From: a virus
Reading direction: 5' to 3' (one strand)
Length of the DNA: 52,295 nt
Virus record (IMG/VR): IMGVR_UViG_3300045963_000039
Span: 1-52,295 of that record
Part shown: one piece after another, positions 1 through 51,954 of the stretch
Numbering within the stretch: position 1 is the first letter of the stretch
Layout: each line of letters begins with the position of its first letter
Notes under the pieces: model-generated
The model's input: only the letters and a program-made list of their open reading frames with translations
The model's database searches: none
What the model was told of the DNA's origin: nothing
Program-made: the position numbers and the translations under genes

Positions 1-633
1 AAATTTTAATGCATCTATATGCATACTTGATATTTGTTCATCGTCAAACAAAAACCAGTCTGATATTTTATGTTTTTGGCATCCTATAAACATAAACTCA
101 GAGTTAAAAGTGATGATCCATTTATCAGCATGGATTGATTTAATTTCTTTACAGTTTCCAATCGATCTGGATAAATTAGCTCCAGATAAATTAGCTCCAG
201 ATAAATTAGCTACAGATAAATTAGCTCCGTATAAATTAGCTCCAGATAAATTAGCTCCAGATAAATTAGCTACAGATAAATTAGCTCCGTATAAATTAGC
301 TCCAGATAGATTAGCTCCAGATAAATTAGCTCCAGATAAATTAGCTACAGATAAATTAGCTCCAGATAAATTAGCTAAGGCTAAATCAGCTACAGATAAA
401 TTAGCTCTGTATAGATCAGCTTCGGATAAATTAGCTCTGGATAAATTAGCTCTGGATAAATTAGCTCTGGATAAATCAGCTCTGGATAAATCAGCTCTGG
501 ATAAATCAGCCCTAGATAAACTTACTTTTAAATCAATAGCTATCTTTACTGTTAAAGCAATATTGTTTTCTTCTATTTCATGAGAAAAAATTACATTTCC
601 TGAGTATCTGTTTTTTATTTCTATTTTTGACAT
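1..633 (-). CDS. Pentapeptide-repeat protein (3' end beyond window)
   Basis: The frame is open from the ATG at 633 to the window edge (211 codons, no stop). The N-terminus (about 35 residues, beginning [13 protein letters not shown]) is non-repetitive. It is followed by about 23-24 pentapeptides of the form A(N/D)L(S/Y)(G/R/V), the signature of a right-handed quadrilateral beta-helix. A C-terminal cap follows, with the motif [10 protein letters not shown] and an acidic segment, a tail often seen on phage pentapeptide proteins. Some family members (Qnr, MfpA) mimic DNA and bind gyrase; nothing here shows that this one does. Its start overlaps the stop of the amidotransferase gene (TAATG), so the two are probably translationally coupled. 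The plus-strand reading of the repeat is only a shadow. Confidence 0.85.
165..525 (-). repeat. Tandem 15-bp repeats encoding pentapeptides
   Basis: About 23 tandem 15-bp units encode the pentapeptides of the preceding gene. Bases 181-240 and 241-300 are identical, a 60-bp duplication equal to four pentapeptides, which is one coil of the predicted beta-helix. Other units differ by single bases. Confidence 0.9.
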
Positions 634-1871
634 TACATACACTCACTAATTGAATTATAACAAGGATCGCAGTAATCCCTATTAAATTGACTACTTATAG
701 AGCTTAAAGTTTCACAACAGTTCTTACAATGCTTTATGTTTGGATCTGATTTACCGTGTAAGCTCTGATAGTAGTGTTCTATTTGTTTTTCCCATAACTC
801 ATCATCTTCTTCATCCTCTTCTGTTGTTACTAGAACTAGTTCCTTTTTTTTCTTAGATAGACCTATTAAGGTTGCGTAAGCATTGCTAGATGTTACAGAG
901 GTGACCCTAATATCTATTAATTTATCTAATAGGGATTCTGCTTCATTCCTATTTATACCAGTAACATTAATATCTTCACCTAAATAAGTACAAGAAATAT
1001 AGCCATAGTTATTTCCATTCTGATAAGCCACAAATTTCTTTGCAATAACTGATATATTCCCTTGCTTTAACAAAAAACCTTTATCTTTTGCCTCTTCTTT
1101 CTTTGGCAATAAGACAACCTTTTTTGTAGAGTAATAATTCGAGTAGTCATATGTATCATGAGTATGAGGACTAAATTTATTAATAAAGACATCATCATCT
1201 CCGATTGTCTTTATAGCAATATGAACTCCTTCTTTTGTTGATGTAATACTTTCATAGTCTATATCATTTCTAATAAGTAACCATTCTAGCATACCTTTTT
1301 CACTTGCAAAGAAAGTAGATTTACTACCTTTAATAGTAGCAAAATACATTGGCCTCTCTTTATTTCTAGCAAAGTTTAAGGTTTGGAGGGCATCATCATA
1401 CCATACCAGAGAATATGCACCTTTTAAAGACTCTAAAGATTCTTTTATATTCAATGACTTACTAAAGTTAGCTGTAATAGCTTCAGAGTCTACAGTATAG
1501 TTCTCTTTGTTTAGAAGATTATGACTGTTTAAAGTTCCATTATGGAATAGGGTAATATCTCCATGAGAAAACGGATGTGCATTAGTATCATTTATACTTC
1601 CAGTTGTAGCAAATCTATTATGTCCTACTACAAAAGTATTATTGTGTGATATTAGTCTTTTAGTAACTGGCATTTCTAGGAAGTCTATCGCATTCAATGA
1701 CTTCTTATAACTGCTAGACACACCTTGATTAGTAACAGTTAGTAGCCCCGTTGAATGCAAACCTCTAACACTATCACATATCAACATTTGATTGAATACT
1801 TTATCAAAGGTAGTAGGGTATAGCTTTGATCCAGGTTTTTCTTTATTTATATATCCAACTATTCCACACAT
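633..1871 (-). CDS. Class II glutamine amidotransferase
   Basis: The protein begins MCGIVGYIN; after removal of Met, Cys2 is the N-terminal nucleophile of class II glutamine amidotransferases, which release ammonia from glutamine. Further family signatures are [13 protein letters not shown] and [14 protein letters not shown] in the first 110 residues and SEAITANF later. The amidotransferase domain fills roughly residues 1-210. The remaining 200 residues hold an acidic stretch and a C-terminal zinc-ribbon-like CxxC pair (CKNC and CDPC). It is the first of six adjacent genes resembling the predicted phiEco32 peptide-modification system, where it would supply ammonia or hydrolyse an amide. It shares TAATG junctions with the genes on both sides. 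Confidence 0.9.
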
Positions 1872-2974
1872 TAGTCTAACTCCGTAGGTGTTGCTTGATC
1901 AAACGAGATAGGTGCATCAAATAGATCATTAAAGATATTTTCTGCATTAAGTACTATATTAGGTTCATTAGTTTTACTTATATTATTTTTATCTGCATAT
2001 GCCTTAAGTAAAGAGTCTTTACCATATTTAACTCTACTTATCTTAGGTTTAGTTGCATATAACTTCTCATAATATATAACTTCTTTAACATCTGTAATAC
2101 CCTTCCTTAATAGAATATTCATATCTCTATTATTAGATAAGGGTTCAAATACACTTCCTTTAAATATTAAAGACAGAACTTTAATACCCCATCTATCGTA
2201 GTAATCTATTAGGTCTGTTATAGTATACTTAAGAGATGCATTTTTAATTGAGAATATAATATTAATCCAATTTTTAAGACTATTAATATCTGATGTACCT
2301 TGATGATGCCTAAACTCAACACTACCATAATTAGACAAAGGTAAGATATTAAGTGCAGAGTATTTATCACAAGTATTTCTAATAGCATCAACTAGATGTG
2401 GAAACAATCCATTCTCTGAATAATATCTAAAATCTTTTAATAGTAACATGAAGTCAGAATCAGTCAATGGTCTGCAATAGTTATTCTTAGATCTATTAAT
2501 ATTACAATATGTAAAGATAACCCTCTCTACCATAAGATATATCATAATAAAATTCAGAACTTCCTTCTCACTGTTGTCTCTAAAATCTAAGTGAACATGT
2601 ACTGATGTACGATCACTAGGCTCTACTTGTTTATTCTTATATATATACCCTTCAAAAAACATGTGTAAATCATTTAAGGCTGCTGTTATATTAGCCCCTT
2701 TTAAAGGTTGATTAAATGTGAATTCAGCTCCATCTCTTAAAGAACCATCCTTAATAACATGCCAGAAAGTAGACAGCTCATTTAGAGAACAAGCATTAGA
2801 GTATCTAAATCTACTAAGTCTTGGCTCTTCTTTGTTAGATGTAGAGAAATCATATCTACAATTTTCAATCTCAACTTCAACGCCTATTGCATCTGTATTA
2901 GATAGAAGAGTGAGGTCAGTCTGATATAAAAGACGGTCTACCTTCTTACCTAGAACATTATATAGCTGAGTCAT
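1871..2974 (-). CDS. Amidoligase (glutamine synthetase-like COOH-NH2 ligase)
   Basis: Motifs of the amidoligase family appear in order: GVEVEIENC near the N-terminus (acidic metal ligands), DGSLRDGAEFTF, RTSVHVHLDF, NNYCRPL and GSVEFRHHQGT. Together these form the predicted ATP- and metal-binding centre of GS-fold ligases that join a carboxylate to an amine. The 367-residue length is normal. The upstream 216-aa gene overlaps its start by 17 bases. Substrate is unknown; in related phages the cluster is predicted to make peptide conjugates on proteins or the cell surface. Confidence 0.85.
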   Translation of the reverse strand: MTQLYNVLGKKVDRLLYQTDLTLLSNTDAIGVEVEIENCRYDFSTSNKEEPRLSRFRYSNACSLNELSTFWHVIKDGSLRDGAEFTFNQPLKGANITAALNDLHMFFEGYIYKNKQVEPSDRTSVHVHLDFRDNSEKEVLNFIMIYLMVERVIFTYCNINRSKNNYCRPLTDSDFMLLLKDFRYYSENGLFPHLVDAIRNTCDKYSALNILPLSNYGSVEFRHHQGTSDINSLKNWINIIFSIKNASLKYTITDLIDYYDRWGIKVLSLIFKGSVFEPLSNNRDMNILLRKGITDVKEVIYYEKLYATKPKISRVKYGKDSLLKAYADKNNISKTNEPNIVLNAENIFNDLFDAPISFDQATPTELD

Positions 2975-3608
2975 ATTTTCTCCTAAAAGGTATTCCTAGA
3001 TCTGATAATTCTTCATTAAATATATTTATATTTAGTTCAAAGAGACCCTCATCTACATTAAAAGACCCTATAGACCATGAGTTTTTAACTAGATCCATAG
3101 TATTAGTAATTCCATTAAGTTTAATGGCTATTGATGGGGTAATGGCAGTTGATAGCCTAGCCAGTGTAAGCACTGATTCTATAGCTTCCTCAAAAGTATA
3201 GAACTTAGGGTTGAATAGATCATCTACTATTTTTGTTATAGGATCACTATAGCTAAGTGACATATAGCTTTTTTCTACATATGAAAGATCCTTATAAGCT
3301 ATAGTGTCTAAATGAAGAGCTCTTTTAAACCTAGAACTAGAATCTCTCTTATGTTTACGTGTTACATTTACTACACTATCTTTTATATTTATAAATCCTA
3401 ATTTAGGTAAAGTAAAATCATACTCCTCTTGATTAAAGAGGATAGATGGAACTGATAACAAGTTTTTATTTTTAAATGTATTATAGTAAATGTATATCGG
3501 AGATTCTGAACCATCTTGAGTGAACTCTTCTACTCTTATAATAGAATCTTTGTATTTTACAAAACATTTAGAATACTTTACTGTTAAATCATGCGCTGTC
3601 TCAAGCAT
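2958..3608 (-). CDS. Unknown protein inside the amidoligase cluster
   Basis: A 216-residue protein I do not recognise. It has no signal peptide or membrane span. It is rich in beta-forming stretches in the N-terminal half, with a helical middle (around DLFNPKFYTFEEAIESVL) and a hydrophobic C-terminal half. It lies between the two ligase genes with overlapping ends (17 bases downstream, 8 bases upstream), so it is co-translated with them and is probably a subunit, substrate or adaptor of the pathway. This is inferred from position only. Confidence 0.75.
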   Translation of the reverse strand: MLETAHDLTVKYSKCFVKYKDSIIRVEEFTQDGSESPIYIYYNTFKNKNLLSVPSILFNQEEYDFTLPKLGFINIKDSVVNVTRKHKRDSSSRFKRALHLDTIAYKDLSYVEKSYMSLSYSDPITKIVDDLFNPKFYTFEEAIESVLTLARLSTAITPSIAIKLNGITNTMDLVKNSWSIGSFNVDEGLFELNINIFNEELSDLGIPFRRKYDSAI

Positions 3609-4407
3609 ACAAGTTATTCCTTGTCATAATAATCTCTGCTAAATTCTTATCAGACTGATTAATGCATTGAACTATATGAGCTTTTTCGAAGATGGCTATC
3701 TCGCTAAGCTCTTCTAAGTTATCATATACTCTCTTAACACTGTCAAATACCCAACCCATCAACCCTTCTGATCTAAGCCAGAAATTAGATAGGGTACGAT
3801 ACTCCACCCCATCGTACGGATCTTCATTAAGAGTATCTTTAGGTCTAAAAGACCCTGCTTTACCATAGAGTGACCTCCTATCTATATCATCATCTAATAG
3901 GACACTAGGTACACCTAATACTAAATCTAAAGCTTTAACGAACTTAGCTCTATTCTCATAACTGCCTTCAGCTTGATCAAATGATATATGTAAATGGCCT
4001 CCTGCTGCTCTCTTATTAGTTTTAGAGTAGTCTACCTTTACATTCTCTCTCCAATTCCACACATCAAAGTCAGGTTCACAACCGGCCAACTGAGCCAATG
4101 GATCTGATAGTAGTGATTTAGTGCATAGGCTACTAGCAATAAAATCTAACTTAAGATCTAAAGGCTTTAATACTTCTTCTAAATCTTTTATAATAAGACG
4201 ATGATTATTAATAAAGTCTAGTTTATTATCTGCTGGAATACTATTAAACTCAGCTAAGATATTATCATGCTGAATATAACCATGATTAGTTTTATGAGGA
4301 GAATATTTAGTACCTGGGATATACTTAATAGCAGATACTAACTTTCCTTTCTTATCTCTTAAAAAAGCTTCTGGATCTGAACCAACTTTTAAATATTTAT
4401 TCATCAT
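3601..4407 (-). CDS. PhiEco32-type COOH-NH2 ligase type 2
   Basis: The 268-residue protein carries the signatures of the phiEco32-like amidoligase type 2 family: GSDPEAFLRDKKG near the N-terminus, QHDNILAEFNSIPADN, GCEPDFDVWNW, AAGGHLHISFD and GVEYRTLSNFWL. The acidic and histidine residues in these motifs are the expected metal and ATP ligands of a GS-like fold. It is the second amide-bond-forming enzyme of the cluster. It ends inside the start of the unknown 216-aa gene and follows the ATP-grasp gene by 6 bases. Confidence 0.88.
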   Translation of the reverse strand: MMNKYLKVGSDPEAFLRDKKGKLVSAIKYIPGTKYSPHKTNHGYIQHDNILAEFNSIPADNKLDFINNHRLIIKDLEEVLKPLDLKLDFIASSLCTKSLLSDPLAQLAGCEPDFDVWNWRENVKVDYSKTNKRAAGGHLHISFDQAEGSYENRAKFVKALDLVLGVPSVLLDDDIDRRSLYGKAGSFRPKDTLNEDPYDGVEYRTLSNFWLRSEGLMGWVFDSVKRVYDNLEELSEIAIFEKAHIVQCINQSDKNLAEIIMTRNNLYA

Positions 4408-4413
4408 GTTTTC

Positions 4414-5202
4414 CTATAAGTAATGTATCTTAAAAGCATCTATATATTTCTGTACAGTATTACCCTCTAAACCTGGAGATGTATTAACTTCTAGTGCGTA
4501 TACTTCTCCCTCTTTAGTTACAATAACATCTACAGCTCCAAAATCAAGGCCTAAGGAAGAAACAGACCTTACCCCTATACCTACTACTGCTTGATAAATA
4601 TCAGAGTCTAAGTCATGCTTAAGATTCGTAGAAAAGTAATAGCCATTCCCATGGCAACGTACTAGCTGATTATCTATACCAGCCTTCCTCTTCTTCTGTT
4701 GGATGTGTATTACATTCCCAGAGACTACATGAACTCTATATTCCCACATCTTAGGAATATATAAGGTATATAAGCCAGCCTCTACTAACTCATCAGGATT
4801 TCTAGCTATAACAATTCCAGATCCACCTGATCCATTAATCTTAGTTCTACAAAATACTATAGCTTTACTATTATTATCAAAGAACATTTCTGCTAGTTCA
4901 GGTTGTAGTGTCCATTGAACTGTATTAATATTATAATCTTCAAACAGTCTTAAAGTAGCTATCTTATTAATAGCACATGAAACACTCCAAGGGTGGTTAA
5001 AAAGAATACCAGATCGCAACCAAGGTATACTACTACACCCCCAATTAATCATAGGTTGCATTTTATCTTTAGGTTTAATTCTAGGTGTATATATTTTAAG
5101 ACCTAAAGATAGAGCAATTTGTGTAGAGTAGAGATGAGATAGCTCGTTCTTATTACCTTTGTGATATTTTCTACGTTGTATAAAGATCATATTAACACCC
5201 AC
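4414..5202 (-). CDS. ATP-grasp carboxylate-amine ligase
   Basis: This 262-residue protein has an ATP-grasp layout: a glycine-rich loop RTKINGSGGSGIVIA (about residues 119-133), a central strand with YIPKMWEYRVHVV, and the C-terminal catalytic motif DFGAVDVIVT followed by YALEVNTSPGLEG (Glu and Asn bind Mg-ATP). The family makes acyl-phosphate intermediates and joins them to amines. With the two GS-like ligases it makes this a three-ligase cluster, as in phiEco32. The start may be MGVNMI or the internal ATG at MIFIQ; the first overlaps the cyclotransferase stop. Confidence 0.87.
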   Translation of the reverse strand: MGVNMIFIQRRKYHKGNKNELSHLYSTQIALSLGLKIYTPRIKPKDKMQPMINWGCSSIPWLRSGILFNHPWSVSCAINKIATLRLFEDYNINTVQWTLQPELAEMFFDNNSKAIVFCRTKINGSGGSGIVIARNPDELVEAGLYTLYIPKMWEYRVHVVSGNVIHIQQKKRKAGIDNQLVRCHGNGYYFSTNLKHDLDSDIYQAVVGIGVRSVSSLGLDFGAVDVIVTKEGEVYALEVNTSPGLEGNTVQKYIDAFKIHYL

Positions 5203-5611
5203 ACCCTATCAACTCTGATAGGCTTACTTTATTCTTATAAGACCAGTCGATTACTGTAGAGTCTGGAGATATTCTAGGCCTATTAAGAATAGTCTCCTCT
5301 TTTACTACTTTATAAATATAAGGGCTATACGTAATACCATTATTAAATACCTCAACCTTATCTCTACGGTAGAAATGAGGGTGGCCTTCTAACTGGTCTA
5401 ATCTTTTTAAAGTAGCCTCATCAACCTCATATATCTCTACCTTAATAATCTTACCCCCTGATATAATGCTAGGGAATGATCCCATAGATACCATATCATA
5501 CTCTTCGTTGGTAATTCCTTCAGCTACAAATGTACTATCTTTAAGTAGATAATGATTAGACTCACCTTTCTTCAATGTACCATATACTGCCACTAATTCT
5601 TTATTCATCAA
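5192..5611 (-). CDS. Gamma-glutamylcyclotransferase-like protein
   Basis: The 139-residue protein starts with VAVYGTLKKGESNHYLL, the substrate-cavity motif of the GGCT/AIG2 fold, and has LDQLEGHPHFYRR, whose glutamate matches the catalytic acid of the family. These enzymes release an amino acid from a gamma-glutamyl amide by forming 5-oxoproline. In the cluster it would act as an editing or reversal enzyme for gamma-linked peptides, an inference from the known phiEco32 gene set. It overlaps both neighbours by about 11 bases. Confidence 0.88.
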   Translation of the reverse strand: MMNKELVAVYGTLKKGESNHYLLKDSTFVAEGITNEEYDMVSMGSFPSIISGGKIIKVEIYEVDEATLKRLDQLEGHPHFYRRDKVEVFNNGITYSPYIYKVVKEETILNRPRISPDSTVIDWSYKNKVSLSELIGCGC

Positions 5612-18575: not shown

Positions 18576-18998
18576 ATGTTTGATATACCAGCAGCAGTAG
18601 AAGCAGGATCTAATTTAATTAGTAAGATCCTAGATAAAGTAGCACCTGATGCAGACTTTGCAGAAAAGAATAGAATTACTCTAGCTCTAACAGAGATGCA
18701 GAATGAGTATAATGTAGTTCTAGCACAATTAAAGATCAATGATACAGAGGCTGCATCTCCTAGCTTCTTTGTTGCTGGAGCAAGACCTGCTGCTATGTGG
18801 GTAGGCGTTATCTCATTGGCATACTCTGGCATTGGTATTTCACTCTTATCATGGATCAGTCTTCTATTCGGTGGAGCACCTCTACCATTCATAGATACCT
18901 CTACCCAAATGAACTTACTAATGGGTCTATTAGGTCTTGGTGGTATGCGTACTTATGAAAAGACTAAAGGTGTAGATACTAAAACTATGGGGAAATAG
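18576..18998 (+). CDS. Holin, GTA 3TM type
   Basis: 140 residues. The N-terminal amphipathic helices are followed by SFFVAGARPAAMWVGVISLA, the conserved Arg-Pro-containing start of the GTA_holin_3TM family, and two further hydrophobic segments (IGISLLSWISLLF and LLMGLLGLGGMRTYEK). Holins permeabilise the inner membrane and time lysis. The GH108 lysin lies 3.6 kb downstream, so the cassette is interrupted by terminase and portal genes. Confidence 0.8.
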   Translation: MFDIPAAVEAGSNLISKILDKVAPDADFAEKNRITLALTEMQNEYNVVLAQLKINDTEAASPSFFVAGARPAAMWVGVISLAYSGIGISLLSWISLLFGGAPLPFIDTSTQMNLLMGLLGLGGMRTYEKTKGVDTKTMGK

Positions 18999-20621: not shown

Positions 20622-22633
20622 TGGCAATAGAAGATTTAAAAGACTATGATTTAGCTACACGACACTGGCTCCGTTATCAACACTCCCTTCTAAGAGGACA
20701 TAATACCTACCAACGCCAAGCACGTCTCTGTGAGGACTTTTATTTAGGTGGTGGTAGGCAGTGGTCAGATGATGATAAACAGGCCTTAGATGACCTTGGA
20801 AGACCTTGGTTAGAAGAGAATATAATCTTTAGTACAGTTAATACTGTAGTAGGTTATCAAACTCAGTCTAGGATGGACATAGCATATAAACCTAGAGAAG
20901 ACGATGATCAGAAAATATCTGATGTACTCTCTAAGGTAGCGATGTTCTTAACAGATCAGAACAAGTTTCCTTGGAAAGAGAGTACAGTCTTTGCAGATGG
21001 GTTAATACAGCAAAGAGGTTACTTTGACATTAAAATGGACTTTAATGAGAATGTATATGGTGATATATCTATAGAGGTGTTAGATCCTCTTGATGTTATA
21101 CCAGATCCAGATTCTAAGAGTTATGACCCAGATGACTGGGCAGATGTAACAACTACCTCCTGGATGACCTTCGATGATATTAAGACTACCTACGGTCTAG
21201 CTAAATGGAGACAAGTTCAAGCTCAAATTGAGTCATCTCCTGACTTTGGTAGAGGTACTCTAGAGCAAGAAAGAAATAAATTTGGTACTACTAATAACTT
21301 CTCTTCTTTTTATGTAAGTGAAGCGGATGTACCACATGCTCGTATTATCAATAGACAGTACTGGAAGTTACAAAATAGAGAATTCTTCTTTGATCCAGTT
21401 GTAGGTGATCTATATCCTACTTCTGACTCTATGACTACTAAAGATAAAAAGAAGTATGCTAAAGATAATAAGTTTGAGATTATTAAGAAGACCACTAAGC
21501 GAGTAAGATGGACAGTATCTACAAAAGATGTAGTTCTATTTGATGAGTGGAGCCCTTATGATCACTTTACAACAGTCCCATACTTTCCTTATTTTAGGAG
21601 AGGTGTAACAGTAGGTCTTGTAGATAATCTTATTAAGACTCAAGAGATGCTTAATAAAGTATTCTCTCAAATATTGCATACAGTAAATACTACAGCAAAC
21701 TCTGGATGGATTGTAGAAGAAAACTCCTTATCTAATATGGATACAGAAGATCTTGAAGATGTAGGTGGTCAGACCGGCCTAGTATTAGAGTTTAAAGCTG
21801 GTAGACAAAAACCAGAAAAGATTGAACCAAATCAGGTTCCTAGTGGTCTAAAGGATTTAGTCACTTCAGGAATTGATCTAATAAGATTGATATCAGGAGT
21901 CTCTGAAACATTCCAAGGTGGAAAAGGCCCAGAGGTATCTGGTGCAGCTATACAATCTAGAGTTCATCAGTCAGCCATCCAACTGGCAAGTCCAATCGAC
22001 AACCTATTTAGAACTCGTAATATGATAGCTGACCGTATATTAAAGCTACTACAAGCTTTCTATACACAAGAAAGAACATTCATGATTGTTGGGCCTAATC
22101 CTAATGGGAAACATGTACCACAGAAAGTCACAATTAATAAAGAATCAGATGATGGTTCTAGCCTTATTAATGATATTACTGTTGGTAAATATGATGTTGT
22201 AATTGCAGATGTTCCTACACAGATTACCTTCCAAAATGCTCAGTTCTCTCAAGCTATAGAACTTAGAAAATATGGTGTTCAGATACCTGATGATGAAATG
22301 GTTCTAATGAGTACTCTATCTAGAAAAGTTGATATAGCTAAAAAGTTATCAGGAGATCAAACACCTGAACAACAACAGCAAGCTCAGCTTCAAGTTGAAA
22401 CAATGAAGAAGACTATCGAAGATATGGAGTCTAAAGCAAAAGCTAAGAATGCTGAGGCACTAAAACAAATAGCAGATGTTGCTACACTTATTGCAGCTAA
22501 TCCTAAATTAAGCCCATTAATGGATGCACTATTATCCACTCTAGATTCTGATGAGTCTACTGAATCACCTAATGAACAAGATCAAGCTCCTTCTGTACAG
22601 CCTGCTCAACCACAGCAATTAGGACAGACATAA
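20621..22633 (+). CDS. Portal protein, P22 type
   Basis: About 670 residues from the ATG at 20621, which overlaps the terminase stop (TAATG); a TTG at 20606 would add five residues and is less likely. Family features are FYLGGGRQWSDDDKQAL, the RPWLEENII region, VLDPLDVIPDPDS and a central GVSETFQGGKG segment of the P22-type portal. The C-terminus is a Gln-rich coiled coil. It forms the dodecameric DNA gate at one capsid vertex. Confidence 0.88.
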   Translation: MAIEDLKDYDLATRHWLRYQHSLLRGHNTYQRQARLCEDFYLGGGRQWSDDDKQALDDLGRPWLEENIIFSTVNTVVGYQTQSRMDIAYKPREDDDQKISDVLSKVAMFLTDQNKFPWKESTVFADGLIQQRGYFDIKMDFNENVYGDISIEVLDPLDVIPDPDSKSYDPDDWADVTTTSWMTFDDIKTTYGLAKWRQVQAQIESSPDFGRGTLEQERNKFGTTNNFSSFYVSEADVPHARIINRQYWKLQNREFFFDPVVGDLYPTSDSMTTKDKKKYAKDNKFEIIKKTTKRVRWTVSTKDVVLFDEWSPYDHFTTVPYFPYFRRGVTVGLVDNLIKTQEMLNKVFSQILHTVNTTANSGWIVEENSLSNMDTEDLEDVGGQTGLVLEFKAGRQKPEKIEPNQVPSGLKDLVTSGIDLIRLISGVSETFQGGKGPEVSGAAIQSRVHQSAIQLASPIDNLFRTRNMIADRILKLLQAFYTQERTFMIVGPNPNGKHVPQKVTINKESDDGSSLINDITVGKYDVVIADVPTQITFQNAQFSQAIELRKYGVQIPDDEMVLMSTLSRKVDIAKKLSGDQTPEQQQQAQLQVETMKKTIEDMESKAKAKNAEALKQIADVATLIAANPKLSPLMDALLSTLDSDESTESPNEQDQAPSVQPAQPQQLGQT

Positions 22634-23136
22634 TGAAATTTGATGAAGCTTTTGAGAAACTAATAGGTAATGAAGGTAGTTACTCTGGAAATAGTAATGA
22701 TTCTGGGAATTGGACAGGAGGAAAGATTAGCTCTGGTACTCTAAAAGGTACTAAGTATGGTATCTCAGCGGCCTCTTATCCATCTATAGATATTAAGAAT
22801 CTTACTCTTGAGCAAGCTAAAGGGATCTATATTAAGGACTACTGGAATAAGTTAGGTCTTGATAGACTGCCTCCAGAAATGGCTTTTGATATGTTTGATA
22901 CAGCAGTAAATAGTGGTGTGTCTAGAGCTATTAAGCTTTTACAACATACTGTTGGAACAATAGAAGACGGTATTATAGGGCCTAAAACATTAGATATTGC
23001 ATCTGATTTTATACCCTCAGTACTAAAAATGAGATTTAATGCAAATAGACTACTCTTTATGACTAATCTAAATGCATGGGATGATTTTGGCAAAGGATGG
23101 GCTAGAAGAGTAGCAAATAATATGCTACTTATTTAA
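22633..23136 (+). CDS. Endolysin, glycoside hydrolase 108 family
   Basis: 167 residues. The catalytic Glu lies in IGNEGSYSGNSND (Glu14), followed by GTKYGISAASYPSID, the GH108 pattern. The C-terminal half (MFDTAVNSGVSRAIKLLQ, GIIGPKTL) matches the peptidoglycan-binding PG_binding_3 part. It cleaves glycan strands of the cell wall. No signal peptide, so it depends on the holin. Its place between portal and scaffold genes is unusual and may mark an insertion or a virion-associated role. Confidence 0.85.
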   Translation: MKFDEAFEKLIGNEGSYSGNSNDSGNWTGGKISSGTLKGTKYGISAASYPSIDIKNLTLEQAKGIYIKDYWNKLGLDRLPPEMAFDMFDTAVNSGVSRAIKLLQHTVGTIEDGIIGPKTLDIASDFIPSVLKMRFNANRLLFMTNLNAWDDFGKGWARRVANNMLLI

Positions 23137-25075: not shown

Positions 25076-25452
25076 ATGGCGTTAACAAACTTCGCTGGCT
25101 TAACATCCCAGCAAAAACTTGTCTGGTCTAGAGAGATCTGGCAGGCAGCTCGTGATTTATCATTCATCAATAAATTTGTTGGTGGTCCTGATGCTGTAAT
25201 TCAACGTATTACTGAGTTGACTAAAACTGAAAAAGGCGAACAGGTAATCATGTTCCTCTTGGCAGATTTGGTAGATGACGGTGTTGTTGGTGATAGCGAA
25301 AGGGAAGGTAACGAAGAAGAGATGAAGTCTTACAACCAGACTATCTCTATTGATTTGTTGTCTCACGGAGTTAGACAGAAGGGTAAATTAGCTGAGCAAA
25401 AGACTGTAGTTGGTTTTAGAGAAAATGCTCGTGACAGATTAGCATATTGGCT
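25076..25452 (+). CDS. Major capsid protein, exon 1 (N4-gp56 family)
   Basis: N-terminal 125 codons plus two bases. FAGLTSQQKLVWSREIW, RITELTKTEKGEQVIMFLLA, GDSEREGNEEEMKSYNQTI and KLAEQKTVVGFRENARDRLA are signatures of the N4-gp56 major capsid family. The frame runs on only to a TAA just past the splice site, so the protein requires splicing to exon 2 at 26356. Joined, the junction reads YWLANRMDQLAFL, as expected for the family, and the mature protein has 367 residues. AGGAAG precedes the ATG. Confidence 0.9.
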
Positions 25453-25613
25453 TAACGATACCAGGCCCTTAGCAGCGTAAGTTGTTTAGCAAATCCCTCT
25501 AATTGCTGGAAACTCTTTAAAATAGTTAAACTACAACATAATCTGAAAAGATAAGTGTGAATGTCAAAAATTAACTATTATAAGACAATCAGCAGCTAAT
25601 ACCCTAAAAAGTC

Positions 25614-25641
25614 TTGACAAACTAAAAATTTGTGATATACT
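25614..25641 (+). promoter_or_regulatory. Near-perfect sigma70 promoter inside the intron
   Basis: TTGACA (25614-25619), 16-base spacer, TATACT (25636-25641). It lies just upstream of the R box and about 70 bases before the homing endonuclease ATG, so it could drive separate expression of that gene. Confidence 0.5.
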
Positions 25642-25711
25642 ATATGGGTAAAGTTCAGAGACTAGTCGAAAGACGTAGAGTTATAGTATTAACTTGAAAT
25701 GGGGGAGTAGT

Positions 25712-26297
25712 ATGCATTATTGTAAGTCTTGTAATGAGACAGATTTAAGTAAGTTCGGAGTTCACTCAACATCTAAAAAGCCACATGGTTATTGCAGAGT
25801 GTGTAGGAACTCTAGGTATATTGAAAAATCTAGAGAATATTACCAGTCAGATAAAGGCAAGTGTATAAAAGCTAAATCTGATAAAAAATACTATATAGAT
25901 AATGTAGATAAAAGAATATAATAAACTTTATAGACTTAAAAATGCTGAGCATATAAAGAAGTCTAGAAGGGATTCATACCTTAAAAATAAAGATGAAATA
26001 CTATTAAAATTATCTAATTATAAAAAGAATAATAAAGATAAAGTAAATAATCTATGTGCAAAGAGAAGAGCTAGTAAATTATCAGCTACTCCAGATTGGG
26101 GTAAGTTAAATTTATTAATTATAGAAGAAGCATATAATCTATCTAAACTAAGAGATGAGTTAACGAATATAAAATGACATGTTGATCATATAATACCTTT
26201 AAATAATAATAAAGTATGTGGATTACATGTTGGAATAAATCTACAAGTTATACCAAGAATAGAAAACTTAATAAAATCTAATAATGTAAGACTATAA
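25712..26297 (+). pseudogene. Degenerate HNH homing endonuclease in the intron
   Basis: The frame opens at ATG 25712 (GGGGGAG upstream) with two zinc knuckles (HYCKSCNETDLSKFG, YCRVCRN) and is closed at 25919-25921. Removing one A from the run at 25910-25913 restores a frame through repeated KN-rich helices to a TGA at 26175-26177. The TGA stands just before HVDHIIPLNNNKVCGLHV, where HNH relatives usually have Trp (TGG). Beyond it the core continues through INLQVIPRIENLIKSNN to TAA at 26295-26297, overlapping the S box. Two independent lesions indicate a non-functional gene. Confidence 0.85.
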
Positions 26298-26355
26298 GAT
26301 ATAGTCCGATCTCTATAGAGATATAGAGTGAGAAAGGATTTCTCGTAACATAATG

Positions 26356-27082
26356 TGCCAATCGTATGGATCAGCTAGCTTTCTTAACTATGGCAGGTAT
26401 TTCTTATGCCTTTAACAATGATGGTTCTCCTAGAACCTCAGGAGCTTTCGCAAGCTTGTCATTTGCATCTACTGTCGCTGCACCTACTACCAACCGTGCT
26501 AAACGTTGGGATGGGTTAAATAGCCAGTTAGTAGCAAGTAACACTGCTGCAATGCTTGCAACAGATACTTTAACTTATAAAGCTATCGTAGATACTGTTG
26601 TACAAGCTAAAACTCATTATATTAAGCCTTTGATGCAAGGTGGTAAAGAATACTATGTAGCCTTTATTCGCCCTGAAGGTCTTGCTCAGCTTAAGAAAGA
26701 TCAAGATTATCAAAGAGCAGTTGTAACTGGTGCTGATCGTGGCAAAGATAACCCTTTCTTCTCTGGTGGTATTCTGACTATTGATGGTGTTGTTTTCCAA
26801 GAACATCGTTTAGTCTATAATACTAAAGGTGCTTTATCTGGCTCTAAGTGGGGCGCATCAGGTACTATTGACGGTTCTAGAATGATGCTTTGTGGTAGCC
26901 AAGCTTTAGGTATGGCTGATCTAGGCGCTCCAGAATGGAATGAAAAATGGTTTAACTATGCTTCATCTCCTGGTATTAACGTAGATAAGATGTTTGGTTT
27001 ATTGAAACCTAAATTCTTCAGCATCTACGATAAGAGCGTTGAAGATTTCGGTGTATTCTGCGTAGATCACGCTATCTCTTAA
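26356..27082 (+). CDS. Major capsid protein, exon 2
   Basis: Begins with T-GCC-AAT-CGT-ATG in phase with exon 1. The internal ATG at 26366 is not a start but a codon in the NRMDQLAFLTMAGISYAF segment. The C-terminal two-thirds of the N4-gp56 capsid follows, including ANRAKRWDGLNSQLVAS and YYVAFIRPEGLAQLKKDQDY and the terminal DFGVFCVDHAIS. A terminator lies ten bases after the stop. Confidence 0.88.
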
Positions 27083-45725: not shown

Positions 45726-47408
45726 TTAGCCCTCACAAGCTACACATTCACCTTTACTGGTACTAACACCAGACTCACTTCTTATATAGTATAAAGATTT
45801 AATGTTGGGGTCTTTGAAGGCCATTTGATGAACTTCAGATATATACCCTTCATCTTCATCAGCACTAAAGAATAGATTGATAGACTGAGCTTGATCTATA
45901 TATCTCTGTCTAGTAGATGCCATTCGTATGATGGCCTTCTGATCTATTTCAAATGCGGTCTTAAATACATCCTTCTCATGATCTGATAACCAATCAACTC
46001 CTTGTACACTTCCTTTATTCTTTATAATATCTGAAATAGTTTCTTTAGAATATACCCCCTTCTCTTTCATAACTTTAAGAAGAGAGGGATTCACTCTATC
46101 CATTTCTCCTGATGCACTGCCTTGTATATAGGCATTCTTATATATAGGCTCTATACCTTGACTAACTCCACCGCATATCAACGATGAGGAGAGATTAGGA
46201 GCTATAGCTAATAGAGTAGAGTTTGCTCTTCCTGTAGCAAATGTAACCTTACACTCTTTAAATACATCTACTAACCATCTACTAGCATTATTGCTTTCAT
46301 GATATATCTCTTTAAATAATTCTATATTCTTAAGATGTGCTTCTAAACTCTCAAAAGGAATACTCTTATCTTGTAGATATGTATGGAAACCTAATGCTCC
46401 TAATCCTAAAGCCATATGATTACGTGTAAAGTTTACAGCTTTCTCTAGACCTTTTATCTTAGACCCAATCTCTATAAAGTTTAATGCTACACAATGCAGA
46501 AATACTATGCTATCAAAGATTGTATCTGTATCTTTCCACTCATCATATTTAGAAAGATTAAGTGAAGATAATACGCAAGTAAAAGTTTCATCATGATTTG
46601 ATGGAAGAGCTATTTCTGTACAAAGATTAGAGGCTAGGATTGGCATATCAACATAGAAATCTGGAGCTAGTCTATTCACTTTATCTGTAAAGAAGTAATA
46701 ACCTTTACCAGAGATCATTTTTAACTTTAGAGACTTCTGATAACGATCTATAGCATCAGGATCTCCTTTATCTAATCTATCTATAAAATCATCAGATATA
46801 CACCAACCAATATTAGCATCATCAGGATTCTTAGATATATAGTTTAATAGCTCATAGAAATCATCATGATCTATGGGTAGATAGCCAGCCCATGCACCTC
46901 TTCTACTTCCTTGATTAATATCTCTGCTAACTTGAACGAAGTCTTTGAAGACTGGCAAAACTCCAGAACTACTCCCTCTCATACCAGTTATCTTACTTCC
47001 TCTAGGTCTAATATCTCCTAGATAGCCTGAAGTACCAAACCCATTTTTAGAGAGAAGTGCAGCTTCTAATTGTCCTTCATAGAAACCATAAACACTATCA
47101 TCTATATACCCTCCAGAACAAGATACAGGACAACCTTTACTTCTTCCCATACTAGAAAGAACTGGAGTAGATGCCGCTAACCAACCATTCCAAAGTAGAT
47201 TGAAGAACTTCTTATTCCAGTAAGGTCTCTCTGGCATATATCTGGAAGCAGTCCTTGCTATCATTTGGAATCTAGCTTTGAGAGTCTCTCCTTCTTCTAG
47301 ATACTTATCCTTAAGCATTTGATAGGAGTTAGTTGTTACCCATTCTGGCATCTCTCCAGCATCTTGTAACTCTTTCCTCTCTTTAGATAATTGTTTATAC
47401 AGATTCAT
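45726..47408 (-). CDS. nrdA: Ribonucleotide reductase large subunit, class I
   Basis: 560 residues. The active-site motif SNLCTEIALP (Asn261, Cys263, Glu265) carries the thiyl-radical Cys and catalytic Glu; redox Cys partners are probably near CPVSC (93-97) and Cys278 (FTCVLSSLNL). The radical-transfer Tyr pair is in KSLYYIRSE near the end and the C-terminal swapping cysteines are in ECVACEG. It lacks an N-terminal ATP-cone, so dATP inhibition is not expected, common in phage enzymes. It reduces NDPs to dNDPs with the subunit encoded next door; the ends of the two genes touch. Confidence 0.95.
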   Translation of the reverse strand: MNLYKQLSKERKELQDAGEMPEWVTTNSYQMLKDKYLEEGETLKARFQMIARTASRYMPERPYWNKKFFNLLWNGWLAASTPVLSSMGRSKGCPVSCSGGYIDDSVYGFYEGQLEAALLSKNGFGTSGYLGDIRPRGSKITGMRGSSSGVLPVFKDFVQVSRDINQGSRRGAWAGYLPIDHDDFYELLNYISKNPDDANIGWCISDDFIDRLDKGDPDAIDRYQKSLKLKMISGKGYYFFTDKVNRLAPDFYVDMPILASNLCTEIALPSNHDETFTCVLSSLNLSKYDEWKDTDTIFDSIVFLHCVALNFIEIGSKIKGLEKAVNFTRNHMALGLGALGFHTYLQDKSIPFESLEAHLKNIELFKEIYHESNNASRWLVDVFKECKVTFATGRANSTLLAIAPNLSSSLICGGVSQGIEPIYKNAYIQGSASGEMDRVNPSLLKVMKEKGVYSKETISDIIKNKGSVQGVDWLSDHEKDVFKTAFEIDQKAIIRMASTRQRYIDQAQSINLFFSADEDEGYISEVHQMAFKDPNIKSLYYIRSESGVSTSKGECVACEG

Positions 47409-48421
47409 TAAGAGACCTCATAGTTTACTAAAGACCCACTCCACTTAAATGCGGTCTCACTCCAATTTCTATTATAATCTGACCCCTGACGAACAAAGAA
47501 ATCATGGAGTACAGAACTATTCAAGTTATTATAAAACCAATCTTTAATAGGATTATATTTAGGTAAATAAATCGGTTTAATATTTAATTGAGATAAACAA
47601 ATATCTAATCTAGATTCTACAAAGTTTATAAGTTGATGAGCTGTTATCCCTTTTATCTCACCTCTCTCAAATATCTTATTAATGATTACAGTTTCATGTT
47701 CTAATATAATCTTAGAAGTATCTACTATATCTTCTACAAGCTCTGTAATATTGAAATTAGGATTCTCGGATAGAACTTCAGATAGGTACGTGTTATATAA
47801 CCAAGCACCTCCTTGACTATGAAGATCTTCATCTTGTGCAGAGAAGTTAATACCAGCATTAATATTGACAAGTTTATTCTTTCCTTGTGTTTGAAAGTGC
47901 TTAATAAAAGCAAATGAACTATAAAGTACAGCCCCTTCTATCATAGAGAAAATTGCTATACTCTTCAATCTATTAAAATGTGTATCTCTTTTTTCAACTC
48001 GCTTTCCTATCCACTTCATTCTATTAGTTAATATAGGATCATCTAAGTATGAGTTATAAAACTCATCAGTATCCAAACCTAGCAGCTCATTAAGTCTACT
48101 ATAGAATGGTGCATGAACACCTAACTCCATAAAAGAGAATGTAGCTGCCATACGCTGAATATCAGGGCGAGGGAAGATACTAGAAATATAGTCTTTCCAG
48201 TATTCGTTCCCAACTGACAACTCGTAGATTGTAAAAAGCTTAAGAACAGAGATGATACCATGATACTCACTAGCAGTAAAATTAGTTTTAAGATCATGTA
48301 TATCCTTTTCTATTTCTATTTCATCTGGCAACCAGAAGATTTCAGATTGTTGTCTAGCAAATGAGACAGCCTGTGGATAGTCTATTGTATATGTAGATTT
48401 AGGTTGTAGAATTTTTATCAA
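47408..48421 (-). CDS. nrdB: Ribonucleotide reductase small subunit, class I
   Basis: 337 residues from a TTG start at 48421 preceded by ACGAGG. Metal ligands by pattern: Glu67 (IYELSVGNEYW), Glu99 and His103 (FMELGVHAPFY), Glu162 (MIEGAVLYSSF), Glu198 and His201 (AQDEDLHSQGG). Tyr107 lies four residues after His103, matching the radical Tyr of E. coli NrdB. The Glu99-His103 spacing is four rather than the usual three. The stop touches the nrdA start. Confidence 0.92.
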   Translation of the reverse strand: MIKILQPKSTYTIDYPQAVSFARQQSEIFWLPDEIEIEKDIHDLKTNFTASEYHGIISVLKLFTIYELSVGNEYWKDYISSIFPRPDIQRMAATFSFMELGVHAPFYSRLNELLGLDTDEFYNSYLDDPILTNRMKWIGKRVEKRDTHFNRLKSIAIFSMIEGAVLYSSFAFIKHFQTQGKNKLVNINAGINFSAQDEDLHSQGGAWLYNTYLSEVLSENPNFNITELVEDIVDTSKIILEHETVIINKIFERGEIKGITAHQLINFVESRLDICLSQLNIKPIYLPKYNPIKDWFYNNLNSSVLHDFFVRQGSDYNRNWSETAFKWSGSLVNYEVS

Positions 48422-48735: not shown

Positions 48736-50403
48736 CTATGGTTTAGGTAAATTTGGATCAGTTGCTGACCATTGAATCTCATAACTAGCAGGTTGTACTT
48801 GGCTTAATGGGTCTTTAGTTGACCAGTATAGGAAGGAGCTATTAATAACAATAGTTTTACCGTTATTAATAATATACCAACCATTATCAGCACTATTCGG
48901 CATGTGTGCTTCTATTATCCCTATTAATGCATTTAATATTGGATCAGAAGTTGTAGTATTTCCTGTCCAACCTGTACCTAATGTTACTGGATACCATTTT
49001 TTATTAATAATTGGTTTACACTTCGGCAACTTCATCAGCTCATCCATGACCTTTTTAAAGTTAACTACTCCGGTTTTTACTTGGCTATTAGCTATATTAG
49101 TTATATGAGCTACTCTATTTAAAGCTTGATCTGGTAAGTTTTCCAAGAAGTCTTTTTTAAGCGGAGTAGCCGTAGCAGCCATAGCCTTATAGACGTCATC
49201 TCTATTAACCGAAGGGCACTGATCTTTAATTAGCGTACCCATTGCTGCCGAATCACTAGTAGCAGTAGAAGAGCCACCATAATAAGCAGGTTTACTTGTA
49301 ACACCACCGCCATCAGTTACTTTCTGTGCAAGCCCACTCATGTGAACACAGAAGTCGGGCCCGTCTACTCCAGAATCGGATGCTAAGGTAACTGCTCCTA
49401 ATACTGGATTATCAACACACATACCAACTCGTAAGATACTAGGGTTATACTTCTTACCGTGATCAGTAAACCCATTATTGCCCATTGCTTGGAATACTAG
49501 TGTATTATGCTTACTAGCAATAGAAGTCATCATGGCATCTTCTTCTGGCCTATTACCGTTAGCCTTATCTTCTGAGAGTGATACCACTGACTGATCTGTA
49601 TGTGCTGGAAAATTTAACTCCGCATCTACTTGTGTAAGCCCTGCCTCTATATCTCTATCCGCAATATCAGCACCCTCAGATACAGCAACTGGAAATACTT
49701 TAGTCGTCTCATGTGTTAGACTACACACGTTATTATCCATAATATTTCCGTGCTCTTGTATTTCGCTAGGTAGTTTTTCATAAGGCTGTTGATATCCTTT
49801 AGCCTTAGCTGTACCGGTTACTTTACCAGGAAGTAGTTTAGGTGGGCATCCAATTACTCCAAATGGTTCATTCCGTTCCGAATCTACAACGTAAATTTTA
49901 GCTGGTACTCCATCTATACCTTTATGTGGGTAAACTTGTAGGAACTCATTAAGACCTAACCAGGTAGGTTCATCATAAACAGGTATACCAAAAGGCTCTG
50001 ATACTGTCCAGGTACTTTCTGCGGCGTTACCGATAAAAGTTAAACATTTATTATTTAACGTAAGCTTATTGGAAAATCTTTTTAAGATAGTCCTTAGGAA
50101 AACCTGGTATGACACAGCCCCTTTAGGTGTTACCCTATTCTTATACATAGCCATATAAAGAGGGTCAAGCTGAGGAGAGCTAATAACGTAGTCTATGTAG
50201 GTAACACCTAAAGATTTATGGGTTAAGCTAGCCTTATTATACATAGGCCCATCATTTAAAAATACGGAAGTACCCCTAGGCATCGACACTTGAGCCATGA
50301 AGTTTTTGTAAGTACAAGAAGGAGTTTTTGTAACATGAACGCCGAGTATAGGGGCTGCATTTAAACTTGAACAAAACAACATCAATATCAAAAGTTTCTT
50401 CAT
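48736..50403 (-). CDS. Secreted subtilisin-like serine protease (S8)
   Basis: 555 residues with a Sec signal peptide (MKKLLILMLFCSSLNAA, cleavage likely after Ala17). The catalytic residues occur in subtilase order: Asp174 in KIYVVDSERN, His218 in QEHGNIMD, oxyanion Asn309 in FQAMGNNGF, and Ser379 in YYGGSSTATSDSAA. These replace the common DSG, HGTH and GTSMA contexts, so the family is divergent. Several Cys pairs suit a periplasmic protein. About 150 residues precede the Asp, like a propeptide or N-domain, and about 110 follow the catalytic core. Base composition is less AT-rich than its neighbours, hinting at separate origin. The target is unknown; lysis or surface remodelling are possible. 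Confidence 0.8.
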   Translation of the reverse strand: MKKLLILMLFCSSLNAAPILGVHVTKTPSCTYKNFMAQVSMPRGTSVFLNDGPMYNKASLTHKSLGVTYIDYVISSPQLDPLYMAMYKNRVTPKGAVSYQVFLRTILKRFSNKLTLNNKCLTFIGNAAESTWTVSEPFGIPVYDEPTWLGLNEFLQVYPHKGIDGVPAKIYVVDSERNEPFGVIGCPPKLLPGKVTGTAKAKGYQQPYEKLPSEIQEHGNIMDNNVCSLTHETTKVFPVAVSEGADIADRDIEAGLTQVDAELNFPAHTDQSVVSLSEDKANGNRPEEDAMMTSIASKHNTLVFQAMGNNGFTDHGKKYNPSILRVGMCVDNPVLGAVTLASDSGVDGPDFCVHMSGLAQKVTDGGGVTSKPAYYGGSSTATSDSAAMGTLIKDQCPSVNRDDVYKAMAATATPLKKDFLENLPDQALNRVAHITNIANSQVKTGVVNFKKVMDELMKLPKCKPIINKKWYPVTLGTGWTGNTTTSDPILNALIGIIEAHMPNSADNGWYIINNGKTIVINSSFLYWSTKDPLSQVQPASYEIQWSATDPNLPKP

Positions 50404-50434
50404 TTTAACTCCTATTATTTATAGTGAAAAGGAT

Positions 50435-50453
50435 GCTCTGAATCTCACAGAGC
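50435..50453 (-). terminator. Weak hairpin after SleB-like gene
   Basis: GCTCTG (50435-50440) and CAGAGC (50448-50453) with a 7-base loop. On the minus strand only four T residues follow after a short gap, so termination would be partial. Confidence 0.4.
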
Positions 50454-50483: not shown

Positions 50484-50861
50484 TTAGTAATAAATCATGT
50501 TACTAATTCTAATCGGTTTATAGGGTGTATCAAATCTTTTACCTAGTCTTACATGGTTAAAGAATTTACGATTACCTATAGGATTGGCGTGTTTACCAAG
50601 TAAGTACTGATGAGCGATCTTTTTGGCCCTATTAAATGACTCTTCTTCGCTAATCTTTACATGACTTTTAGTCCATGAGAAAGCTTTCTTTTCATATACA
50701 ACTCTACAAATGGTAGTTGGATAGTCCTTATCAACAACTCGATTAAGTGTAATAGCTGCTACTGCGATCTGGCCTTTCAAAGACTCTCCCCTAGACTCAT
50801 GATAGATATTCATCGCTAAGCATAGAAGAGCTGCCTGTAGTATTATCCGTATCCTACCCAA
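50484..50861 (-). CDS. SleB-type cell wall hydrolase
   Basis: 125 residues. CLAMNIYHESRGESLKGQIA carries the catalytic Glu of the Hydrolase_2/SleB family, followed by VAAITLNRVVDKDYPTTICR and KKAFSWTKS. The family cleaves peptidoglycan glycan strands as a lytic transglycosylase. It is a second wall-degrading enzyme besides the GH108 protein. The start is unclear: TTG at 50861 lies inside the 20-codon frame 50843-50905, and an ATG comes only at residue 17, inside the catalytic domain. The N-terminus is hydrophobic but belongs to the first domain helix. Confidence 0.8.
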   Translation of the reverse strand: MGRIRIILQAALLCLAMNIYHESRGESLKGQIAVAAITLNRVVDKDYPTTICRVVYEKKAFSWTKSHVKISEEESFNRAKKIAHQYLLGKHANPIGNRKFFNHVRLGKRFDTPYKPIRISNMIYY

Positions 50862-50974: not shown

Positions 50975-51388
50975 TTATTTTTCTACCTCCAACTCCCTTA
51001 AAGCTAGTTCAAGAACTGCCAAGGAATTCCAAGCTTTATGTGCCTTATGTAATAATCCTGAATCAGAATCGTAAGGCCCGTCTATCTCATCATAGAACTG
51101 ATGTCGTAGTTCAGCAGAGGTATATCTTCGGATGCCGTTAGGTACATGCAACCAACCATGCTCCGAATACTTCTTAGCTCCGAAGGTTCCTACTTTACCT
51201 ACTTCAATTAAAGCCCTACTAAAATCACCGAGTACCAAACCAAGATCAGGCTTTCCATGATCTAACTTAGCGCCTTTATCTTTACTAGAAAGTCCAGTTG
51301 GATCTGCCTCTTTTATAATAGTAGTATCTTCTCCATCAATATTATTATCTAAATTCTCAGTTACTAGAAATTTATATAGTTTCTGCAT
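50975..51388 (-). CDS. dATP/dGTP diphosphohydrolase-like (DUF5664) protein
   Basis: 137 residues. DKGAKLDHGKPDLGLVLGDF, GTFGAKKYSEHGWLHV and RHQFYDEIDG, plus HKAHKAWNSLAVLELAL, match the phage dATP/dGTP diphosphohydrolase N-terminal domain family. The helical acidic and His residues would bind metal and split dNTPs to dNMPs. With MazG and NrdAB it belongs to the dNTP-pool module. Its start overlaps the next gene's end. Confidence 0.75.
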   Translation of the reverse strand: MQKLYKFLVTENLDNNIDGEDTTIIKEADPTGLSSKDKGAKLDHGKPDLGLVLGDFSRALIEVGKVGTFGAKKYSEHGWLHVPNGIRRYTSAELRHQFYDEIDGPYDSDSGLLHKAHKAWNSLAVLELALRELEVEK

Positions 51389-51579: not shown

Positions 51580-51954
51580 CTATTTAAAATTAAGCATAGC
51601 TTTAATATCTAAAAGAGTAGACTCTTTAGGAAGATCTGCTTCTTTTACAAAGACTCCATTAATCATTTTACCTTTACGATCTTTAATTTCATTCCATGCT
51701 AACTCTAAACACTTTTCTACAGAAGTATTATGTAATGCTGCATTAATGATAAGAGTTACAACTATATCTCCTATATCATCTTTAATACAAAAGCCACGAG
51801 CAGCATGATTAGCAAACTCTCCAACCTCACTTACACACTTAAGAGCTTGAGTAGCCTTGTGTAATGGAGTAGGATTATCCAATAATCCTCTATCCTTAGC
51901 CCAGAATATTACATTTTCTTCTAGCTCATTAAAACCTTTATTTCCCATTTGCAC
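51580..51954 (-). CDS. MazG-like nucleotide pyrophosphohydrolase
   Basis: 124 residues. The metal-binding motif is SEVGEFANHAARG followed by KDDIGDIVVTLIINAA, the E-x-x-E ... D/E-x-x-D arrangement of all-alpha NTP pyrophosphatases. It would hydrolyse (d)NTPs or host alarmones. Near the thymidylate synthase and DUF5664 genes. Confidence 0.8.
   Translation of the reverse strand: MQMGNKGFNELEENVIFWAKDRGLLDNPTPLHKATQALKCVSEVGEFANHAARGFCIKDDIGDIVVTLIINAALHNTSVEKCLELAWNEIKDRKGKMINGVFVKEADLPKESTLLDIKAMLNFK

What the first reader, a model, noticed from the sequence alone, without database searches (positions are those of the whole stretch)
48736..50403. Exported subtilisin-like protease encoded by a phage
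A signal peptide and the ordered Asp174-His218-Asn309-Ser379 set identify a divergent S8 protease in a lytic-type genome, where secreted subtilases are rarely described. Periplasmic proteolysis could aid lysis, remove receptors to prevent rebinding, or counter host periplasmic defence.
Basis: partly seen in the sequence, partly recalled or inferred. Interest (0 to 1): 0.7.

Follow-up and report, generated by a model that had tools for sequence, protein, structure and literature searches.

The report
Phage-encoded exported subtilisin-like protease
A virus of bacteria carries an extra gene for a highly divergent, probably active, subtilisin-type protein-cutting enzyme with an export signal; most such enzymes in other bacterial viruses have no such signal, so this one probably acts on the infected cell's envelope, though its target is unknown.

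Summary
ORF 48736-50403 (minus strand, 555 aa) has a good ribosome-binding site, a textbook signal peptide and Asp174, His218, Asn309 and Ser379, with S8 spacing (44/91/70; 5-95% ranges of 73 S8 domains 30-55/91-101/62-91).

Pfam and PHROGs see nothing. The only NCBIfam hit is an S8 model (mycosin, E=9.8e-4). A 73-sequence S8 profile scores it above all 400 shuffles and 333 other ORFs. A structure from the lone sequence failed. One built on an S8 alignment gives a subtilase (Z about 24), but that alignment favours the fold.

The phage is a relative of MW202615 and KPP25-like podoviruses, with no integrase found. In two near relatives nrdB and a SleB-type hydrolase are neighbours with 0.2-0.3 kb between; here the protease gene sits between them. 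It is in the replication/nucleotide block, far from holin and endolysin, so a dedicated lysis role is not favoured. No homologue was found in any collection searched.

S8 genes in phages are known (110 of 50,697 records), but 12 of 13 examined in credible phage records lack a signal peptide. Best reading: an accessory exported serine endopeptidase that remodels the host envelope. Substrate and role are inferred.

The parts
48736..50403 (-). CDS of the exported S8-like protease, 555 aa plus stop
50409..50413 (-). Shine-Dalgarno AGGAG, 5 bases before the ATG
   Evidence: sequence printed
50356..50403 (-). signal peptide, residues 1-16 (MKKLLILMLFCSSLNA), likely signal peptidase I cut A16|A17
   Evidence: by inspection; hydropathy 2.9
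49993..50355 (-). residues 17-137, between signal peptide and catalytic domain; possible pro-region, fold not resolved (pLDDT about 30)
   Evidence: pro-region role is inference
49015..49992 (-). catalytic S8 domain, residues about 138-463
49882..49884 (-). Asp174 codon (triad)
49750..49752 (-). His218 codon (triad)
49477..49479 (-). Asn309 codon (oxyanion hole)
49267..49269 (-). Ser379 codon (nucleophile)
48739..49014 (-). C-terminal extension, residues 464-555, no assigned fold
50435..50453 (.). 6-bp hairpin between the SleB-type gene and the protease gene (terminator-like, at chance frequency)
47408..48421 (-). nrdB (ribonucleotide reductase small subunit), downstream flank shared with relatives
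50484..50861 (-). SleB-type cell wall hydrolase (PF07486), upstream flank shared with relatives

Best explanation
The gene encodes a divergent S8 (subtilisin-type) serine endopeptidase that the infected Gram-negative host exports through Sec. The signal peptide is cut after Ala16, the protein folds in the periplasm (eight cysteines remain for disulfides), residues 17 to about 137 probably serve as a pro-region, and the Asp174/His218/Ser379 triad with Asn309 cleaves proteins of the cell envelope. It is an accessory gene inserted between nrdB and a SleB-type hydrolase gene, in the block that carries nucleotide and replication genes. It is therefore more likely made before the lysis stage, and more likely remodels the envelope (receptor removal, exclusion of rival phages, or destruction of envelope defence factors) than drives lysis. 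Shown: ORF, residues, spacing, signal-like N-terminus, S8 profile similarity, insertion relative to kin, distance from lysis genes. Inferred: Gram-negative host (from relatives), folding, activity, localisation, timing, substrate. The S8 assignment is about 0.9 likely, export about 0.85, envelope remodelling as the main role about 0.35.
For: Catalytic residues and spacing. Calibrated S8 profile score far above shuffles and other ORFs, with N309 and S379 in register. The only NCBIfam family hit is S8 mycosin, E=9.8e-4. Model on an S8 alignment: core blocks at pLDDT 70-95, VIA Z up to 24.2 to Kex2 over 277 residues, Foldseek E=5.9e-11 to subtilisin BPN'. Signal-like N-terminus and eight mature cysteines. 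Insertion between genes that neighbour each other in relatives G004 and G011. Holin and endolysin elsewhere. Precedent that lytic phages export receptor-blocking proteins: T5 Llp (PMC9586334).
Against: No hit to Pfam PF00082 even at E=10; the mycosin hit is far below its curated cut-off (18.3 against 278.75 bits). Single-sequence AlphaFold failed, and the good model used an S8 alignment that pushes toward the answer. The signature motifs are degenerate (HGNIMD for HGTxVA, GSSTATS for GTSxAxP), so reduced or no activity is possible. No homologue means no test of selection. Timing and substrate are untested. The neighbour SleB-type hydrolase could hint at a lysis-time role.
Confidence: 0.7

Rival explanations
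1. Lysis helper: the exported protease accumulates in the periplasm and at lysis weakens envelope proteins, or stands in for a spanin, working with the adjacent SleB-type hydrolase.
For: Neighbouring gene is a cell wall hydrolase; no spanin was recognised among the genes scanned near the holin.
Against: The hydrolase is conserved next to the RNR genes in relatives that lack the protease. The main holin and GH108 endolysin lie 26-30 kb away on the opposite strand. The spanin search was not exhaustive.
Confidence: 0.2
2. Counter-defence or anti-competitor protease that destroys a specific periplasmic or outer-membrane defence factor or toxin of the host.
For: Accessory, single-phage gene at a cargo-like position; exported.
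Against: No direct evidence of any target; such host-range cargo would be expected in some relatives, and none was found.
Confidence: 0.2
3. Catalytically dead S8-fold protein kept as an exported binding or blocking protein.
For: Motif surroundings are degenerate at all three triad residues.
Against: All four catalytic residues and their spacing are intact, which is unlikely to persist without use.
Confidence: 0.12
4. Not a protease: chance motifs in an orphan exported protein.
For: Pfam and PHROGs show nothing; the unaided fold failed.
Against: Calibrated S8 profile score above all 733 controls, plus D/H at the right distance outside the aligned stretch.
Confidence: 0.08

Closest known systems
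MEROPS family S8 / Pfam PF00082 (subtilisins; by NCBIfam, mycosin TIGR03921)
   Same: Asp-His-Asn-Ser order and spacing; profile similarity over the N-S half; subtilase fold when modelled on an S8 alignment
   Different: Below every curated cut-off; degenerate motif surroundings; about 120 aa between signal peptide and catalytic domain and a 92-aa C-terminal tail without assigned fold
Cyanophage S8 proteins (P-SSM2 PSSM2_297, S-WAM2, S-H38)
   Same: Tailed-phage S8 proteases of about 550-610 aa
   Different: No signal peptide; encoded between tail-fibre/baseplate or virion genes, so probably virion-associated; no detectable sequence match to this protein
S8 proteases of Bacillus and Staphylococcus phages (Goe25, SP-15, FADO, phiSA_BS1, PSU4; PHROG 3677 for the ones scanned)
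   Same: Phage-encoded S8, some outside the structural genes
   Different: No signal peptide; close to intracellular-type subtilisins; Gram-positive hosts
T5 Llp superinfection-exclusion lipoprotein
   Same: Exported protein of a lytic phage that acts on the host outer membrane (analogy in role only)
   Different: Small lipoprotein that blocks its receptor without cleaving it (PMC9586334)

Membership tests
Peptidase family S8 (subtilases) | Catalytic Asp, His, Ser in that order with S8 spacing | tested here: met
   D174-H218-S379; spacings within the 5-95% range of 73 S8 domains
Peptidase family S8 (subtilases) | Oxyanion-hole Asn between His and Ser | tested here: met
   N309 in AMGNNG, in register in HMM and hhalign alignments
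Peptidase family S8 (subtilases) | Sequence homology to S8 profiles | tested here: met
   hhalign 36.8 versus a control maximum of 26.1; TIGR03921 E=9.8e-4. Curated cut-offs are not reached and PF00082 gives no hit
Peptidase family S8 (subtilases) | Subtilase alpha/beta fold | tested here: inconclusive
   Model on an S8 alignment matches subtilases, Z up to 24.2, but the alignment favours that fold; the single-sequence model failed
Peptidase family S8 (subtilases) | Serine endopeptidase activity | not testable with these tools
   needs purified protein and an S379A control
Secreted S8 (subtilisin-like) | Sec signal peptide | tested here: met
   By inspection: KK n-region, 11-residue hydrophobic core, LNA|AP cut site; no predictor was available
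Secreted S8 (subtilisin-like) | Inhibitor_I9-type propeptide | tested here: inconclusive
   Residues 17-137 have no Pfam hit and no confident fold
Phage lysis-cassette protein | Encoded with the holin/endolysin genes | tested here: not met
   Holin 18576-18998 and GH108 endolysin 22633-23136 are 26-30 kb away on the other strand; only a SleB-type hydrolase is adjacent
Virion-associated phage S8 protease | Encoded among tail/baseplate genes, no signal peptide | tested here: not met
   Located between nrdB and SleB-type gene; signal peptide present

The most novel reading that the evidence does not exclude
Probability: 0.25. Interest if true: 0.75.

Novelty: new variant of a known kind. Interest (0 to 1): 0.42.

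Why it matters
Known phage S8 proteases examined here mostly lack export signals, and some sit with tail genes. An exported, very divergent one in a replication-type block would mean a phage re-targets a general protease to the envelope of the cell it is already inside. It is a defined single-gene test case for proteolytic superinfection exclusion or envelope counter-defence, and it shows that standard Pfam/PHROG annotation can miss phage subtilases.

Tried and rejected
Homologues: none in phages, plasmids, IMG/VR (three peptide-pattern scans with the protein or parts of it), genome contigs, 20 related phage records, or 369 genomes of the class of G021. The pattern scans need an exact 8-residue match, so distant relatives can be missed. 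Two weak hits (E about 0.003 over 68 residues) do not score as S8 and are taken as chance. Single-sequence AlphaFold was uninformative. Catalytic-column matching by MAFFT was rejected as evidence because shuffles pass at about 1%; one search had a column error and is not used, and timed out. hmmalign placed only Ser379. A first hhalign with 8 S8 sequences was weak (E=0.13), improving to P=3.3e-4 with 73. Promoter-like sites are at chance level. Contig chimera rejected: both flanks are phage genes syntenic in relatives. PDB sequence search gave only E>=0.1 non-S8 hits.

Full report
Setting. The window is a 52,295-base IMG/VR virus record, classed as linear. Its portal is 74% identical to that of MW202615.1 (a circular 65 kb podovirus from Manatee Spring) and 34-45% to portals of Acidovorax phage AP1 and Pseudomonas phage KPP25. 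IMG/VR records of 63-67 kb (G003, G004, G011) share most of its gene order. No tyrosine integrase or serine recombinase was found in it or in those three records, and the KPP25-like relative CRPAP1904 is reported as lytic (PMC13340246). 'Lytic-type' is therefore reasonable, but about 13 kb of the genome may be missing.

The observation. ORF 48736-50403 (minus) encodes 555 aa, with AGGAG 5 bases before the ATG and all four named residues at the stated numbers. The N-terminus MKKLLILMLFCSSLNA|APIL fits a Sec signal peptide cut by signal peptidase I. Its hydropathy peak (2.9) is second among the 43 window genes tabulated. This is inspection, since no predictor was available. Nine cysteines include one in the signal, leaving eight in the mature protein.

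Is it S8? Pfam and PHROGs give nothing useful, even with relaxed cut-offs, and PF00082 finds nothing in the record at E<=10. The only NCBIfam hit is TIGR03921, the S8 family mycosin (E=9.8e-4, residues 271-414, far below its curated cut-off). I collected 73 S8 domains from phage and bacterial loci. An HMM of them ranks the protein first among 5,475 sequences including 2,000 shuffles (E=0.0053, next 1.1), aligning AMGNNG with AAGNEG and GSSTAT with GTSMAT. hhalign scores it 36.8 (P=3.3e-4) against at most 26.1 in 400 shuffles and 25.0 in 333 other ORFs. Asp174 and His218 lie outside that aligned stretch, and such a pair arises by chance in 0.7% of shuffled segments. The spacings D-H 44, H-N 91 and N-S 70 all fall inside the 5-95% range of the S8 set. 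A control showed that catalytic-column matching by MAFFT alone is weak evidence. AlphaFold on the single sequence failed (pLDDT 29.7). With 65 S8 rows aligned, core blocks reach pLDDT 70-95, and the model matches Kex2 (Z 24.2, 277 residues, rmsd 3.1) and subtilisin BPN' (Foldseek E=5.9e-11). Because those rows are S8 proteins, the model is consistent with the fold rather than independent proof of it. I put S8 membership at about 0.9. The motif surroundings are degenerate, so activity is likely but unproven.

Where it sits. In G004 and G011 nrdB and the SleB-type hydrolase are separated by about 340 and 200 bases; in the window the same two genes flank the protease, leaving 2.06 kb between them. 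Its GC (38.7%) is the highest of the minus-strand genes tabulated (mean 33.6%, sd 3.0). In MW202615 the corresponding minus-strand block carries RNR, thymidylate synthase and DNA polymerase genes. The holin (PF11351, PHROG 3427) and GH108 endolysin are in the plus-strand structural block. The gene is thus accessory cargo in a nucleotide/replication block, not part of the main lysis genes.

Comparison with known phage S8 proteins. S8 genes occur in 110 of 50,697 phage records, so phage subtilases are not new. Of 13 inspected in credible phage records, 12 have no signal-like N-terminus and one (MTATph1) is ambiguous. Clear signal peptides appeared only in records I doubt are phage (MD-2021a contigs of 100-240 kb; unverified Y5 and Efs 1-1-1). 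Several cyanophage and staphylococcal ones lie among tail or virion genes. The window protein differs in export, genomic context and extreme divergence, and no relative was found in any collection searched.

Mechanism. The most likely course is Sec export, signal cleavage, oxidative folding in the periplasm, possible pro-region processing, then serine-protease attack on envelope proteins. Placement away from the lysis genes favours action during infection: removal or alteration of a receptor, exclusion of rivals, or disabling of envelope defence. T5 Llp shows that lytic phages do export proteins for receptor inactivation (PMC9586334), although by blocking rather than cutting. The role is inferred; lysis help and a dead binding protein remain possible.

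Verdict. A real, well-observed feature and a new variant of a known kind, of moderate interest unless the envelope role is shown.

Noticed in passing
window 25076-27082 (+): The major capsid protein gene is split into two ORFs (25076-25480 and 26366-27082) that align to one intact ~366-aa protein in relatives. The gap holds two sub-threshold Rfam group I intron matches (25443-25678 and 26227-26328, E about 2-4e-4) around a small Cys-rich ORF, suggesting a group I intron in the capsid gene. MW202615 has a split capsid region with an endonuclease-annotated ORF too.
   Followed up: partly
window 170-520: Array of 23.4 copies of a 15-bp unit (GATAAATTAGCTCCA), in frame in ORF 110-583, at the very start of the contig.
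   Followed up: no
window 633-5611 (-): Cassette of glutamine-amidotransferase-like, amidoligase-like, ATP-grasp-like and gamma-glutamyl-cyclotransferase-like genes conserved in all four large relatives; possibly a peptide- or surface-modifying pathway.
   Followed up: no
window 50975-51388 (-): dATP/dGTP diphosphohydrolase N-terminal domain protein (PF18909) next to a MazG-like protein (51580-51954): nucleotide-pool genes upstream of the hydrolase.
   Followed up: no
window 50484-50861 (-): SleB-type cell wall hydrolase (PF07486) in the nucleotide-metabolism block, a second peptidoglycan hydrolase besides the GH108 endolysin; conserved in relatives.
   Followed up: partly
L129 (CAKLQH020000003.1): 'Acinetobacter phage MD-2021a' contigs of 100-240 kb with a signal-bearing subtilisin precursor look more like bacterial than phage sequence.
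   Followed up: no
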